DNA of 64,000 bases. Origin: Skeletonema tropicum. Taxonomy: Eukaryota > Bacillariophyta > Thalassiosirophyceae > Thalassiosirales > Thalassiosiraceae. The notes under the pieces were generated by a model, which was not told where the DNA came from, did not search any database, and saw only the letters and a list, made by a program, of their open reading frames with translations. Position numbers and translations under genes: made by a program. Location: positions 1,676,001-1,740,000 of the forward strand of contig CM074135.1 in the NCBI GenBank assembly GCA_037178625.1, written 5' to 3'. Positions 58,873-63,815 of the stretch are shown piece by piece; within the stretch, counting starts at the first letter, position 1; each line of letters starts with the position of its first letter.

Positions 58873-59289
58873 ATGATGAAAACACTTCCCACGCTACTTT
58901 TGGCACTCTTCGCCGCCACCTCAACTGTTGATGCATTCACATCGTCACCCATGAATGTCTCTCATCAGCAGAAGCAGGGCTTCATTAATGCGCATCAGCC
59001 TACAGCCCTTCGCATGAACAAAACTCAGCTTGTAGAATACGTCGCAGAACGGGCTGATTTGTCTAAAGCTCAATCTAATGCGGCTGTTGAGAGCATCTTA
59101 GACGGGATTACGGAGGCATTGAAAGGTGGTGATCAAGTCCAATTGGTTGGATTTGGTACTTTTAAAGTGAACCACAGGGCGTCTCGTTGGGGGAGGAACC
59201 CGAAGACTGGAGAGGAGATCATGATTGCTGCAGCCAACGTTCCTTCCTTTAAGGCGGGTAAGGCTTTGAAAGACGCTTGTAACTGGTGA
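58873..59289 (+). CDS. Plastid-targeted HU/IHF-type histone-like DNA-binding protein
   Basis: 138 residues from the ATG at 58873; an upstream in-frame start would bury the signal peptide. The leader [22 protein letters not shown] is a signal peptide with Phe after the likely cleavage site (VDA-FTSS), as in diatom plastid preproteins. The mature ~90 residues are a complete HU domain: [19 protein letters not shown], then [26 protein letters not shown], the DNA-intercalating arm with the conserved R-N-P-x-T-G-E, and [12 protein letters not shown] compacts and bends DNA in bacteria; in red-lineage algae it packages plastid nucleoids. Single exon. Confidence 0.93.
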
Positions 59290-59424: not shown

Positions 59425-59944
59425 TGATTGTCTGATTATTCGAGATAGTCTTCTAGCACGTAAAGCAATAGCAATATCATGGATATTCTCAAAACAAATC
59501 ATCTCCCTCCATAAGCATCATATGTCTCATGTTCTTGGCATCTTAAACATCCCTAACCCTAACCCTAACTGGAGAGACATCAACAGGAGCTACATAATAG
59601 ACAAGAATACATCAACAAGAGCAGCATCAACAGGAACTGCATCAGAAACAAGAGAAAACTCAACATGAATTGCATAAACAAGCGCAACATCAGGAGCTGC
59701 ACAAACAAGAGAAACCTCAACAAGAGCATAAAGAAGAATCGAAGAATACTTCAGGTGAAAGCAAGGGCAGCAGCTGTGACAACAGACAACAAGGAACATC
59801 ATTTCTTGCATTTACGCAAATAGAAAGGGTGCGAAAACGCTTAGCATTTATGATCCGACATTCCTCTGTACTACTTCATGATAGATTTAAACCTTTGTAT
59901 CATAGCTTAGCTTGTAACATGTATCCAGTCCTAGTTAGCAGCTG
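59425..59944. repeat. left copy of 520-bp direct repeat flanking the Penelope-like element
   Basis: Apparently identical to 63296-63815 over 520 bp. It contains CCCTAACCCTAACCCTAA at 59551-59568 and a Gln/Glu/His-rich frame on the plus strand. Confidence 0.95.
59551..59568. repeat. telomere-type repeat, three CCCTAA units
   Basis: CCCTAACCCTAACCCTAA. The same tract occurs at 63422-63439. TTAGGG is the usual telomere repeat in diatoms and animals; this is an internal copy. Confidence 0.8.
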
Positions 59945-60230
59945 GGAGCGAGCGAAGCGAGCGACCTTACTTCTCTCTATAATCAAAATAATAATATTAT
60001 AATATATGAACCAATATCAGATAAAGTGGTATTACTATATTACCGAAGCGTGGATGACTACGCTTTCGAATTAACTTCTTCAGCGGATAGCAATAGTAAT
60101 AGTGAGGATAGGCGGCTTTGTCGATGCAAAGTTGCGAGTCATTTAGCTCTCCCTCGTTGACACGAGTTTTCTCCTTAAATGGATACGTGTCTCTGTGGGG
60201 TCATTCCTCGTTATCTAAAATAGGTAAGTT
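59945..60230. repeat. left inverted terminal repeat (286 bp)
   Basis: Reverse complement of 63026-63295 except for a 16-bp AT-rich insertion near 59980-60000. Confidence 0.94.
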
Positions 60231-60240
60231 TGTACAATTG

Positions 60241-60328
60241 CTTTCCCTCAGCAAGTGTAGCTGCCGGGTAGGCAGCGGAACAAGCTGAGGGAAAGGAAGG
60301 GGAGGACTACGATTCTGTTGTCCTCCCC
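60241..60328 (-). other. two consecutive hairpins at the 3' end of the RT frame
   Basis: A perfect 12-bp stem (60241-60252 with 60284-60295) encloses a second 6-bp stem (60260-60265 with 60271-60276, 5-nt loop). A 9-bp stem (60299-60307 with 60320-60328) overlaps the RT stop codon. They are in position to act as an RNA structure in the 3' end of the element transcript. Confidence 0.7.
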
Positions 60329-62304
60329 AGGTAGGTACTTACCTCCTCACCTCTGTTTTGAAAGAGGGAGGTTTGAGAGACAATATCTCCAATGTTTTTT
60401 GCTCTCTTATAGCATACTACCATCTTTTCGATTCCGATTGTGTCGCGTAGGGTGGTAGAAAGCTCCTCCTCATATATCTGTTGACAGGTTCGACTAGGGA
60501 TGTAATGAGGGTGGAATCGACCGAGTTTCAAATAGATGTTTTTGTCATTATCTGAGGTGGTAGATTCTGAGATGGCTTGGGGCAGTGGAGGTGGGTTGCA
60601 GACTTTGTAGTTTGCATTTACGAACATTCGTTTCAGTTGGTCGAAGTCCCATCCTCTGTCGAGCAAGCGTTGGAAGAATAGTCTTGCTACCTCGACATAG
60701 TCTTTTTTATCGGTGCACTGCCAATAGTATCTCTTGAGTTCGCCAAATATTACCCCTTTCATCGTGTTCCTCTGATGAGCAGAAGATGGCAGTAGGTAGA
60801 GGTAGAGGTTCATTGGCTTTTGGTATGTCTTAGTTGAGACAATACCTTCTGGCGAAATGGAAATGATTAAGTCTAAGAAGATTCCTTTGTCGGCAGGTTC
60901 TTCAACCTTCCAACGGAGGATTCCAAAGTCGTTGATGTCTTGCTTGAGGTCGTGAAAGCGCCTAAGGCTTCCAAGCCATAGGACAGATAGGTCATCGACG
61001 AAACGTGCAAGGTCTTGGATTTCTTCCGAATAGCCAGGGAGGAGTCTAATTTTCTCATGCCAGCCATAGTAAAGGCCAGCGTACATGACTGCGACTGATG
61101 TACCCATCGCAGTGCCACATAGTTGTTTGAAAAAGCAGTCTCCAAATTGGGTAATGTTGTTCTTCATAATAAAGCTCAGAGCTTCCAGAATAAGTTTGAT
61201 GTCCGGGAAGTCGTCTGGAAGTTGGTTGTTTTCTTTCAGATGGTTGAGCCATACTCCGATGATTTCGATGCCATGATTGATAGTGATATTGTCGTACATG
61301 GCGGTAGCATCAGCAGTAATAATCTTCGTCCCTGCTGGCCATTGTTTGTTAGTCAGTCGGGCGTGATATTCTTTGCTGTCTTTGATGTTCGACGGAATAA
61401 ATTGAACAAGTTTTTGCAACTCGTAGTCTAGCCACTTGCTAATACTCTCAGGTCCAGTTCCACATTTAGCGTTAACTGGTCGGAGGGCGGTAGGTGTTTT
61501 ATGGACTTTTGCGGTTGCTCTGAATCTTCCTTGCCTGCTACCAGCGGCTTCATAGCACTTGTTGATGTAAATCTTGATGTGCTCTGGGATCGCTGCTGAG
61601 TTCTTGATACTGCCTACTTTATATGTCATCAAATTGAGTTGCCTCCGAAGTGCAATTCGATTGAGGTACTCATATTGGCTCTCCTTCCCAAGGAAAGCTT
61701 TGAGGCACCATCGAATGTATACAGAACGTTCGATAATGACAGGCCCTAAATTTTTGTCTGCGAAGATAATGATCAGATTGGGGTTGTTCTTGAGGCTATA
61801 TAGTACTGAGAACTCTTGTTTAGAAAGATTCGGTTGAGACCATTTACTGGCGAATTTGGCGTGCTCTTGTCTAAGTCGATCTGAGAAACGTTTGATGCCT
61901 GCTTCCACTTCTGCATTAGCTAGGGGTGGGTCGTATCGTTCTTCTCGACTTTTCTTAAAATGTAACTTAGGGATATATGGATGTTGCGGTTTGGTTGGAT
62001 CGTCTACATGAATATTCTTCCAGTAGTTTCGATTTCTGATATCCCATCCAAAGTCACCGATGATCTCTTCAATGTTATTAGTTGGATATGGTGCGAGGAT
62101 GCCGAAGTTAAGTCCTCTGCCCAGCACCTTTCTAGTTCCGATAGGGAGTTTGGTTGTAGGTTTACACAGATTGTGAAGAGTGAGATTCTTTGCCGGATTT
62201 AGCGCATGTTCCAATGGTAGATGTTCCAGATAATTGATAAGATTTGTGTGTGGTGGGAGCGATGGATCTGCTAGGAAGCCGTCTCTTCTATGGATATTAT
62301 GCAT
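60307..62304 (-). CDS. Penelope-like reverse transcriptase (ORF2)
   Basis: 665 residues. The N-terminal ~165 residues are polar, with a conserved-looking segment of the Penelope N-terminal type. RT motifs follow: NLIIIFADKNLGPVII (the K-N-L-G-P pattern typical of Penelope-like RTs), RFRATAKVHKTP, motif A TADATAMYDNI, motif B GTAMGTSVAVMY, motif C RFVDDLSVLW with the catalytic Asp pair, then LDLIISIS (motif D) and the thumb (AHQRNTMKGVIFGEL). The C-terminus reads FHPHYIPSRTC and VVCYKRAKNIGDIV, resembling the R-x-x-N-L-x-D-x-L segment that precedes the GIY-YIG domain in canonical elements. Here the frame ends ~25 residues later with no GIY-YIG. No stops or frameshifts are seen, so it may be active. 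Confidence 0.85.
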   Translation of the reverse strand: MHNIHRRDGFLADPSLPPHTNLINYLEHLPLEHALNPAKNLTLHNLCKPTTKLPIGTRKVLGRGLNFGILAPYPTNNIEEIIGDFGWDIRNRNYWKNIHVDDPTKPQHPYIPKLHFKKSREERYDPPLANAEVEAGIKRFSDRLRQEHAKFASKWSQPNLSKQEFSVLYSLKNNPNLIIIFADKNLGPVIIERSVYIRWCLKAFLGKESQYEYLNRIALRRQLNLMTYKVGSIKNSAAIPEHIKIYINKCYEAAGSRQGRFRATAKVHKTPTALRPVNAKCGTGPESISKWLDYELQKLVQFIPSNIKDSKEYHARLTNKQWPAGTKIITADATAMYDNITINHGIEIIGVWLNHLKENNQLPDDFPDIKLILEALSFIMKNNITQFGDCFFKQLCGTAMGTSVAVMYAGLYYGWHEKIRLLPGYSEEIQDLARFVDDLSVLWLGSLRRFHDLKQDINDFGILRWKVEEPADKGIFLDLIISISPEGIVSTKTYQKPMNLYLYLLPSSAHQRNTMKGVIFGELKRYYWQCTDKKDYVEVARLFFQRLLDRGWDFDQLKRMFVNANYKVCNPPPLPQAISESTTSDNDKNIYLKLGRFHPHYIPSRTCQQIYEEELSTTLRDTIGIEKMVVCYKRAKNIGDIVSQTSLFQNRGEEVSTYLGRTTES

Positions 62305-62366
62305 TATGATGTCAAGTTTTTGTTGGGCTAGGTTATTGTAATATCGGTCTCTTGAGGCAGTATATC

Positions 62367-62975
62367 TTAGTTCCTTCTGCCTCCTCTTCCTCTCCCTCTG
62401 CCGCCTCCTCCTCGATGGTTTCTTCCTCTTCCACTTCCTCTTCCCCTTCCCCTTCCTGCATGGGAGTTGGGGTTGTTGTTGTTGTTGGAGGATGATTCGG
62501 CATTCTTCTGCTGCTGCGACTTTGATTGCTGTCCTTGTTTCTTCGAATTCTTCTTCGATTTGTTTCTTTTGGACTGACCATTGTTTGTGGGCTTTGTATC
62601 CTGGGACGTTTTGGATTTGCCCGAAGATTTTTTTCGGCTTTCTTTCCTCCGTGCACTTTTCTGCTCTTCCGATTTCAGATTCTTCGCTACTCTAACAGTG
62701 AGCGTGTCAGCAAGCTCTTCAACAAGCTTTTCAGGGTTATCCTTGAGATCTTCAAGGTTCAGGGTGACTTGACGGTTGGCTTCCTCTTGCTTTTTTGACT
62801 TGGAACGAATTACAGCGTCTTTGTTAACGATTCGATGGATCTCTGCCTGTCTATACTCCTCCCAGAAAGGGAGGGTCATGAGGGGCCAGAGTTCAGTAAG
62901 CACGTTCTTGGTCTTAGTGATAACTGTTTTGCAGACTTCGTTATTAGTGAGGGGATTCACTTCTGCTTCCTCCAT
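62367..62975 (-). CDS. ORF1 of Penelope-like element: basic, RGG-rich protein
   Basis: 202 residues, starting at 62975 and ending 62 bp before ORF2. The first ~110 residues are helical (VCKTVITKTKNVLTELWPLM, FWEEYRQAEIHRI). Then comes a Lys/Ser/Gln-rich stretch and an RGG-type tail (GRGRGRGSGRGRNHRGGGG). The make-up suggests an RNA-binding, gag-like ORF1. A frame at 62333-62656 overlaps it and is a shadow. No zinc finger is seen. Confidence 0.7.
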   Translation of the reverse strand: MEEAEVNPLTNNEVCKTVITKTKNVLTELWPLMTLPFWEEYRQAEIHRIVNKDAVIRSKSKKQEEANRQVTLNLEDLKDNPEKLVEELADTLTVRVAKNLKSEEQKSARRKESRKKSSGKSKTSQDTKPTNNGQSKRNKSKKNSKKQGQQSKSQQQKNAESSSNNNNNPNSHAGRGRGRGSGRGRNHRGGGGRGRGRGGRRN

Positions 62976-63025
62976 CGTAGCATCGGCTGTATCGGGAGGG
63001 GGTTGGGTCAGGGGAGGTTCCTCCT

Positions 63026-63295
63026 AACTTACCTATTTTAGATAACGAGGAATGACCCCACAGAGACACGTATCCATTTAAGGAGAAAACTCGTGTCAAC
63101 GAGGGAGAGCTAAATGACTCGCAACTTTGCATCGACAAAGCCGCCTATCCTCACTATTACTATTGCTATCCGCTGAAGAAGTTAATTCGAAAGCGTAGTC
63201 ATCCACGCTTCGGTAATATAGTAATACCACTTTATCTGATATTGGTTCATATATTGATTATAGAGAGAAGTAAGGTCGCTCGCTTCGCTCGCTCC
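63026..63295. repeat. right inverted terminal repeat (270 bp)
   Basis: Pairs with 59945-60230. Confidence 0.94.
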
Positions 63296-63815
63296 TGATT
63301 GTCTGATTATTCGAGATAGTCTTCTAGCACGTAAAGCAATAGCAATATCATGGATATTCTCAAAACAAATCATCTCCCTCCATAAGCATCATATGTCTCA
63401 TGTTCTTGGCATCTTAAACATCCCTAACCCTAACCCTAACTGGAGAGACATCAACAGGAGCTACATAATAGACAAGAATACATCAACAAGAGCAGCATCA
63501 ACAGGAACTGCATCAGAAACAAGAGAAAACTCAACATGAATTGCATAAACAAGCGCAACATCAGGAGCTGCACAAACAAGAGAAACCTCAACAAGAGCAT
63601 AAAGAAGAATCGAAGAATACTTCAGGTGAAAGCAAGGGCAGCAGCTGTGACAACAGACAACAAGGAACATCATTTCTTGCATTTACGCAAATAGAAAGGG
63701 TGCGAAAACGCTTAGCATTTATGATCCGACATTCCTCTGTACTACTTCATGATAGATTTAAACCTTTGTATCATAGCTTAGCTTGTAACATGTATCCAGT
63801 CCTAGTTAGCAGCTG
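63296..63815. repeat. right copy of 520-bp direct repeat flanking the Penelope-like element
   Basis: Apparently identical to 59425-59944; the telomere-type tract is at 63422-63439. Confidence 0.95.
63422..63439. repeat. telomere-type repeat, three CCCTAA units
   Basis: Second copy, within the right 520-bp repeat. Confidence 0.8.

What the first reader, a model, noticed from the sequence alone, without database searches (positions are those of the whole stretch)
59425..63815. Penelope-like retroelement without endonuclease, bounded by inverted repeats and by 520-bp direct copies that contain telomere-type tracts
Seen directly: an intact RT frame with Penelope-type motifs, no GIY-YIG after it, ~280-bp inverted terminal repeats, and two apparently identical 520-bp flanks each with three CCCTAA units. 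Known: endonuclease-deficient Penelope-like elements (for example Athena in rotifers, Coprina in fungi) attach to telomere ends, and canonical Penelope copies carry long pseudo-LTRs. Inference: this may be a telomere-linked lineage with its own terminal structure, or an insertion that duplicated 520 bp of target. The combination of long inverted ends with long flanking direct repeats is unusual for the class.
Basis: partly seen in the sequence, partly recalled or inferred. Interest (0 to 1): 0.88.

Follow-up and report, generated by a model that had tools for sequence, protein, structure and literature searches.

The report
Nuclease-less retroelement inserted at chromosome breaks
This is a telomerase-related jumping gene without a DNA cutter of its own that seems to enter chromosomes by copying its RNA onto both ends of an existing DNA break, leaving duplicated flanks of up to about two thousand letters, and in one case sharing the break with telomere repeats.

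Summary
The window carries a Penelope-like element without GIY-YIG, and its 520-bp flanks are an exact target duplication, not part of the element. The "inverted terminal repeats" are two outward-facing 3' ends: a 5'-truncated copy (F789-3854 of a 3,853-nt, two-ORF element) joined head-to-head to a 270-nt 3' fragment.

The pattern recurs genome-wide. Of 26 clusters with testable flanks, 15 have direct duplications bounding the insert, 10 to 2,185 bp long; 11 show none. Of 47 clusters (first 100 of 168 listed 3' ends), nine hold both orientations: eight are strictly outward-facing, and the ninth reads as two such sets. Head-to-tail spacings of exactly 85 and 3,853 nt recur, as template jumping predicts.

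Copies are interstitial, not telomeric. At C9:3159 kb, however, one 102-bp duplication bounds [PLE][40 nt of CCCTAA repeats], with the telomeric G-strand growing from the right break end. PLE and telomerase apparently extended the two ends of one break.

Best model: endonuclease-independent priming at both 3' ends of broken or doubly nicked DNA. This is a new variant of a known kind; the break's origin is open.

The parts
59425..59944 (.). Left copy of the 520-bp target duplication; holds three CCCTAA units at about 59552-59569
   Evidence: 520/520 identical to 63296-63815; no other place matched query 1-520 (27 of 163 candidates scored)
59945..63025 (-). 5'-truncated element copy (F789-3854); its 3' end faces left
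   Evidence: blastn to the natural full-length copy in L006, 99.1%
60307..62304 (-). ORF2, intact 665-aa Penelope-type reverse transcriptase
62367..62975 (-). 3' part of ORF1 (202 aa here; 470 aa in the full-length copy)
63026..63295 (+). Second, inverted 3' fragment of the element (F3584-3853, 270 nt); its 3' end faces right
   Evidence: 100%
63296..63815 (.). Right copy of the 520-bp target duplication, with the same three CCCTAA units

Best explanation
An endonuclease-deficient Penelope-like retrotransposon that enters interstitial DNA by using 3'-OH ends it did not cut itself. Shown by anatomy: at most target junctions the insert begins with the element's exact 3' end (...GCUCCC); many inserts have two wings with 3' ends outward that meet 5'-to-5' inside; wings are head-to-tail chains of units that are 5'-truncated or run to one fixed 5' end; direct duplications of 10-2,185 bp bound many whole inserts. 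Inferred: both 3' ends of a staggered, widely nicked or otherwise broken site prime copying of separate element RNAs. The RT jumps to another RNA's 3' end when it stops at a hairpin or at the RNA 5' end. The two cDNAs are end-joined, and fill-in of the separated strands leaves the long duplication. Telomerase can extend one of the ends instead.
For: Exact duplications bounding inserts in 15 of 26 testable clusters, lengths 10-2,185 bp; none of the ten duplicated segments tested occurs a further time in the held flanks. Of nine two-orientation clusters, eight strictly outward and one reading as two outward sets. Head-to-head joins lie at unrelated element positions; 5 of 11 are flush. Spacings of exactly 85 (11 of 42) and 3,853 (6 of 42). 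No GIY-YIG in either ORF, and none of the genome's 7 GIY-YIG hits lies in a cluster. PLE plus telomeric repeats inside one 102-bp duplication. Telomerases are the 12 best structural matches. Precedent: the EN-containing PLE PAc extends both strands in vitro (PMC11167929).
Against: 11 of 26 testable clusters show no direct duplication in the held flanks; one of them (C1:467 kb) has 336-bp inverted flanks instead. Three outer ends lack the 3' terminus (L015, L051, left end of C19:210 kb). Some inserts carry filler DNA between element and duplication. No empty allele was seen, and no raw reads. An endonuclease acting in trans is not excluded.
Confidence: 0.72

Rival explanations
1. Replication-linked variant: the two ends come from broken sister chromatids at a collapsed fork. 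Joining a left end broken at p to a right end broken at q, upstream of p, gives a tandem duplication of q..p with PLE cDNA at the join. No long single-stranded overhang is needed. Priming by PLE at both ends is the same as in the best explanation.
For: Duplication lengths spread over two orders of magnitude (10-2,185 bp) without a preferred size. One insert has inverted 336-bp flanks, as fusion of two like ends would give. One insert carries a 556-nt copy of a distant locus.
Against: No direct evidence of replication. Distant nicks on the two strands explain the duplications as well.
Confidence: 0.3
2. Head-to-head inserts arise by self-priming on an antisense RNA template, as proposed for animal Penelope (PMC3846280), with an endonuclease supplied in trans making the staggered cut.
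For: Head-to-head copies and palindromes at the joins are in print for EN-containing Penelope (PMC3846280, passages). The genome encodes 7 GIY-YIG hits that could act in trans.
Against: The head-to-head joins here are at unrelated positions and 5 of 11 are flush, without palindromes. Duplication length is not constant. One wing can be replaced by telomeric repeats.
Confidence: 0.08
3. The long direct repeats are assembly artefacts or pre-existing tandem duplications.
For: No raw reads were available. Three clusters do lie in tandem arrays, satellites or next to an N gap and were left out.
Against: Repeats end exactly at the element border at many unrelated loci. Mismatched pairs of flanks matched in 2 of 702. 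None of ten duplicated segments recurs in the held flanks.
Confidence: 0.04
4. A telomere-dedicated lineage whose interstitial copies are remnants of old chromosome ends or fusions.
For: Telomeric tracts touch 4 of 47 listed clusters: window, C4:545 kb, C1:82 kb, C9:3159 kb. My rough arithmetic from 51 tract starts gives about 0.06 expected within 1 kb, but the window was chosen for its tract.
Against: No listed copy near the terminal arrays of C2 and C3. At C9:3159 kb the telomeric strand has the direction of an end being joined, not of a cap on the element's 5' end, and a target duplication bounds the insert.
Confidence: 0.04

Closest known systems
Endonuclease-deficient Penelope-like elements (Athena of rotifers, Coprina of fungi; names recalled, the class described in PMC3846280)
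   Same: PLE-type RT without GIY-YIG; thought to prime from exposed 3' ends at telomeres or breaks
   Different: Those are described as largely confined to chromosome ends, with telomeric repeats added to the 5' end, and as lacking the pLTR-type structure. Here copies are interstitial, two-winged, and flanked by target duplications up to 2.2 kb
Canonical EN-containing Penelope/Poseidon (A. vaga Pen families, PMC3846280; PAc of Anolis, PMC11167929)
   Same: Tandem and partial-tandem copies giving pseudo-LTRs, an inverted 3' fragment at the 5' side; PAc extends both DNA strands in vitro
   Different: GIY-YIG present, target duplications of 8-10 bp or none in the passages read, hammerhead ribozyme in PAc; none of these in the copies examined here
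Telomerase repair of double-strand breaks leaving interstitial telomeric repeats (PMC2246262, passages)
   Same: Telomeric repeats added at internal break sites, sometimes with target duplication
   Different: Here the telomeric repeats share the break with a retroelement
HeT-A/TART telomeric retrotransposons and endonuclease-independent L1 insertion (recalled)
   Same: Head-to-tail truncated arrays; use of pre-existing ends
   Different: LINE-type RTs; not known to me as two-winged inserts with kilobase duplications

Membership tests
Penelope-like elements (PLE) | RT related to the PLE/telomerase branch | tested here: met
   Aligns with P0057, an RT with C-terminal GIY-YIG, at 18-21%; the 12 best PDB fold matches are telomerases. 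No tree with named references was made
Penelope-like elements (PLE) | Tandem or partial-tandem copies forming pseudo-LTRs | tested here: met
   Head-to-tail units; full-length 5' end joined to an upstream 3' end in seven clusters; spacing of exactly 3,853 six times
Penelope-like elements (PLE) | Hammerhead ribozyme in the pLTR (found in some members) | tested here: not met
   No hammerhead among Rfam matches up to E 1 in L001, L006, L008
Canonical (EN-containing) Penelope | GIY-YIG endonuclease in the RT frame | tested here: not met
   0 Pfam families in ORF2 and in ORF1
Canonical (EN-containing) Penelope | Short target duplication | tested here: not met
   10-2,185 bp in 15 of 26 clusters, 12 of them over 100 bp
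EN-deficient PLE (Athena/Coprina type) | No endonuclease domain | tested here: met
   GIY-YIG in 1 of the 23 aligned relatives
EN-deficient PLE (Athena/Coprina type) | Location at chromosome ends | tested here: not met
   Fetched and listed copies on C2 and C3 are far from the terminal arrays; only the first 100 of 168 ends were listed
EN-deficient PLE (Athena/Coprina type) | RT groups with Athena/Coprina in a tree | not tested
   No named reference sequences could be fetched

The most novel reading that the evidence does not exclude
A mobile cousin of telomerase that acts like telomerase at chromosome breaks. Its RT takes either or both 3' ends of a break, interchangeably with telomerase; the terminal CCC of its RNA can pair with telomeric GGG. 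It adds repeats of an 85-nt 3'-terminal template bounded by a hairpin, in the manner of telomerase repeat addition, before copying the longer RNA. It thereby seals breaks while duplicating up to 2.2 kb of target.
Probability: 0.3. Interest if true: 0.92.

Novelty: new variant of a known kind. Interest (0 to 1): 0.8.

Why it matters
Little is known of how Penelope-like elements transpose (abstract of PMC11167929). Here one genome holds many near-identical, apparently recent insertions whose scars can be read: two outward primings, chains of template jumps, target duplications of up to 2.2 kb, and one insertion in which PLE and telomeric repeats occupy the two ends of the same break. This makes two questions directly testable: whether endonuclease-free PLEs act as break-patching enzymes, and whether PLE RT and telomerase compete for the same DNA ends. 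It also gives a simple source of kilobase-scale duplications in genomes.

Tried and rejected
Rejected: the 520-bp flanks as part of the element (matched only at this locus, where 27 of 163 candidates were scored); true terminal inverted repeats (arms vary by locus); a hammerhead ribozyme; GIY-YIG in cis or inside a cluster; local tandem arrays as the source of the duplications for the ten segments tested.

Led nowhere: PDB sequence searches with the RT (none at E<=1; with the alignment only four weak bacterial-type RT matches, best E 0.017). Two joined-flank searches for duplications longer than the held flanks were swamped by repeats, so longer duplications are not excluded for most of the 11 negative clusters. 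A second, alignment-based protein search added no named PLE.

Dropped before the 26-cluster count: C48 (tandem array), C8:1546 kb (satellite), C4:545 kb (N gap on the right), C38 (contig ends inside the element), and one of two C20 copies (segmental duplicate). Clusters in the list that I did not fetch are not in the count. The 12-nt match in C17:1825 kb was not counted as a duplication. No RT tree with named references and no species assignment were made; 'probably a diatom' rests on the nearest named relatives (Skeletonema dohrnii 55%, Stephanocyclus meneghinianus 38%).

Full report
WHAT IS IN THE WINDOW. The window is C9:1676001-1740000 of a 78.4-Mb genome in 125 contigs. Two 520-bp stretches, 59425-59944 and 63296-63815, are identical. 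Between them lie a 3.08-kb stretch with an intact 665-aa RT frame on the minus strand and a 270-bp stretch inverted relative to its left end. Each 520-bp copy holds three CCCTAA units.

WHAT THE ELEMENT IS. In a search of the genome with the whole locus (27 of 163 candidates scored), the 520-bp flank matched only here, while the interior matched many places, mostly at 93-100%. Other copies carry 788 nt more at the 5' side. One natural full-length copy, in L006 (called F here, sense strand), runs from GGTTGAACACG to ...GCTCGCTCCC, 3,853 nt, with ORF1 of 470 aa and ORF2 of 665 aa. The window copy starts at F789, so its ORF1 lacks the N-terminal part. Pfam finds no family in ORF2 at E<=0.01 or in ORF1 at E<=1. 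In seven clusters the full-length 5' end is joined directly to the 3' end of another copy.

THE RT. 57 proteins matched at E<=1e-3. An alignment of 23 of them and the query has invariant D183-K184, D332 and D437; that the last two are the catalytic motif A and C residues is recalled. GIY-YIG is found in 1 of the 23, the distant P0057. The predicted structure (mean pLDDT 87.4, pTM 0.82) has telomerases as its 12 best PDB matches (best E 5.9e-10, 11-13% identity); viral RNA polymerases follow from rank 13. Sequence search of the PDB found only weak bacterial-type RTs. The nearest named relatives are diatoms, so the host is probably a diatom (inference).

WINGS. The 22-nt 3' end occurs 168 times exactly, 78 forward and 90 reverse; the first 100 places were listed. 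With a 6-kb cut-off these make 47 clusters. Nine hold both orientations: eight read strictly minus then plus, i.e. 3' ends outward. The ninth (C6:431-445 kb) reads ----+-+++++, consistent with two outward sets side by side. Fetched clusters C18:640 kb, C20:563 kb, C63 and C2:3419 kb have the same outward layout. Exceptions: outer ends of L015, L051 and the left end of C19:210 kb lack the 3' terminus, and many clusters have only one wing. Of 11 head-to-head joins that I could read, 5 are flush (window F789|F3584, L050, L017, L018, C7), 3 overlap by 1, 4 or 8 nt, 2 have gaps of 1 or 6 nt, and 1 holds a 453-nt filler. They lie at unrelated element positions.

CHAINS. Within a wing, units follow head to tail. 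Of 42 same-strand spacings under 6 kb, 11 are exactly 85 and 6 exactly 3,853. The latter is one full unit. The 85-nt unit begins just 3' of a predicted hairpin that ends near F3768; another recurrent start, F3561-3563, lies in the 3' arm of a hairpin at about F3519-3573. Three or four 85-nt units in a row stand next to the target in L049, L050 and C19:216 kb. I read the ends as RT stops or RNA 5' ends followed by a jump to another RNA's 3' end. Repeat addition in the manner of telomerase is possible but unproven, and unequal crossing-over could also multiply an 85-nt unit once formed.

DUPLICATIONS. In 26 clusters both flanks could be tested. Fifteen have a direct duplication bounding the insert: 520 (window), 552 (C16), 139 (C18), 164/162 at 98% (C7), 494 with a 556-nt filler (C2:3419 kb), 384 (C20:563 kb), 813 (C17:803 kb), 10 (C2:536 kb), 1238 (C1:2258 kb), 107 at 99% with 4 nt (C19:964 kb), 16 with about 98 nt of filler (C19:279 kb), 16 with 17 nt (C1:2005 kb), about 138 at 97% with 59 nt (C3:1270 kb), 2185 (C1:82 kb) and 102 bp (C9:3159 kb). 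Eleven show none in the held flanks: C3:4477, C8:93, C1:467 (336-bp inverted flanks instead), C19:210, C12:2087, C20:1326, C25:137, C63:33, C1:5613, C17:1825 and C4:1291 kb. Control: right flanks tested against other clusters' left flanks matched by 12 nt or more in 2 of 702 pairs, against 10 of 27 own pairs at offset 0; of those ten, C8:1546 kb (satellite) and the 12-nt match at C17:1825 kb are not counted among the fifteen. None of ten duplicated segments tested occurs again in the held flanks, apart from a weak internal repeat of the window segment. The 556-nt filler has one other copy, at C1:2407 kb; the 453-nt filler of C1:467 kb is repeated elsewhere.

TELOMERE LINK. Long TTAGGG arrays end C2 and C3, with no listed 3' end nearby. 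Short tracts of three or more TTAGGG gave 51 starts in two pattern searches (30; 21), some of them inside terminal arrays; tracts preceded by GG would be missed. Four of the 47 clusters touch one. In the window the tract is inside the duplicated target. At C1:82 kb it forms the left edge of a 2,185-bp duplication (C1:78524-80708 and 83387-85570). At C4:545 kb the target reads ...(TTAGGG)4TTA|GGGAGCGAGC, so the cDNA starts on a telomeric GGG that the RNA's terminal CCC could pair with; the far side is an N gap. At C9:3159 kb the order is 102-bp duplication, PLE (F3856-2374), 40 nt of CCCTAA repeats, 102-bp duplication. The repeats are thus inside the insertion and run in the direction in which telomerase would extend the right-hand 3' end. 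A second repeat pair (182 bp, 98%) lies further out at that locus, so the region is not free of other repeats. The simplest reading is that PLE extended one end of the break and telomerase the other.

MECHANISM. Shown: exact 3'-end junctions at most outer ends, outward wings, chains, duplications of widely varying length, no endonuclease in cis. Inferred: priming from both 3' ends of pre-existing broken or doubly nicked DNA, joining of the two cDNAs, fill-in. The origin of the break is open. Joining of sister-chromatid ends fits the spread of lengths and the inverted case as well as distant nicks do. An endonuclease in trans is not excluded: the genome has 7 GIY-YIG hits, none in a cluster.

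COMPARISON. For animal Penelope, inverted pLTRs with duplications of 8-10 bp or none are in print. EN-deficient PLEs were said to be largely confined to chromosome ends, and those of protists and fungi not to share the pLTR structure (PMC3846280: first of five parts of the text and passages). The EN-containing PAc cleaves and extends both strands in vitro (PMC11167929: abstract, first part of the main text, passages). Telomerase repair of breaks with interstitial repeats is in print for mammals (PMC2246262: passages). Ten searches of the held open library gave, in their listings, no account of this pattern. Most subscription papers, among them the 2007 description of EN-deficient PLEs (seen only as a reference-list entry), are not held, so prior description elsewhere is not excluded.

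Noticed in passing
window 58891-59289 (+): A bacterial-type HU/IHF DNA-binding protein (PF00216, E 3.7e-34) with an N-terminal extension, ending 135 bp before the duplicated target.
   Followed up: partly
L032 5948-7049 (C19:964-968 kb): A 1.1-kb foreign stretch interrupts an element copy; the element bases F1877-1884 are repeated on both sides, as an 8-bp target duplication of a nested transposon would give.
   Followed up: no
C48 and C17:1-23 kb: A tandem array with a period of about 2.1-2.2 kb; one array member on C48 carries a PLE insertion.
   Followed up: no
C63:33-39 kb (L019/L016): One element copy lacks F863-1572 internally, without GT-AG ends; possibly a template skip by the RT.
   Followed up: partly
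C20:1297509-1302832 and C20:1326297-1331620: Two identical element clusters 28.8 kb apart, apparently a segmental duplication that carried the insertion.
   Followed up: no
L034 right flank (C19:281653 onward): About 98 nt of filler ending in a run of 21 T separates the truncated 5' end from the 16-bp duplication; 90 nt of it match the left flank of the C12:2087-kb cluster.
   Followed up: partly
C5:4595195-4606568 and C7:2896761-2899904: Regular spacing of 3' ends (5,676 and 1,561 bp, three copies each) suggests tandem multiplication of whole loci that hold the element.
   Followed up: no
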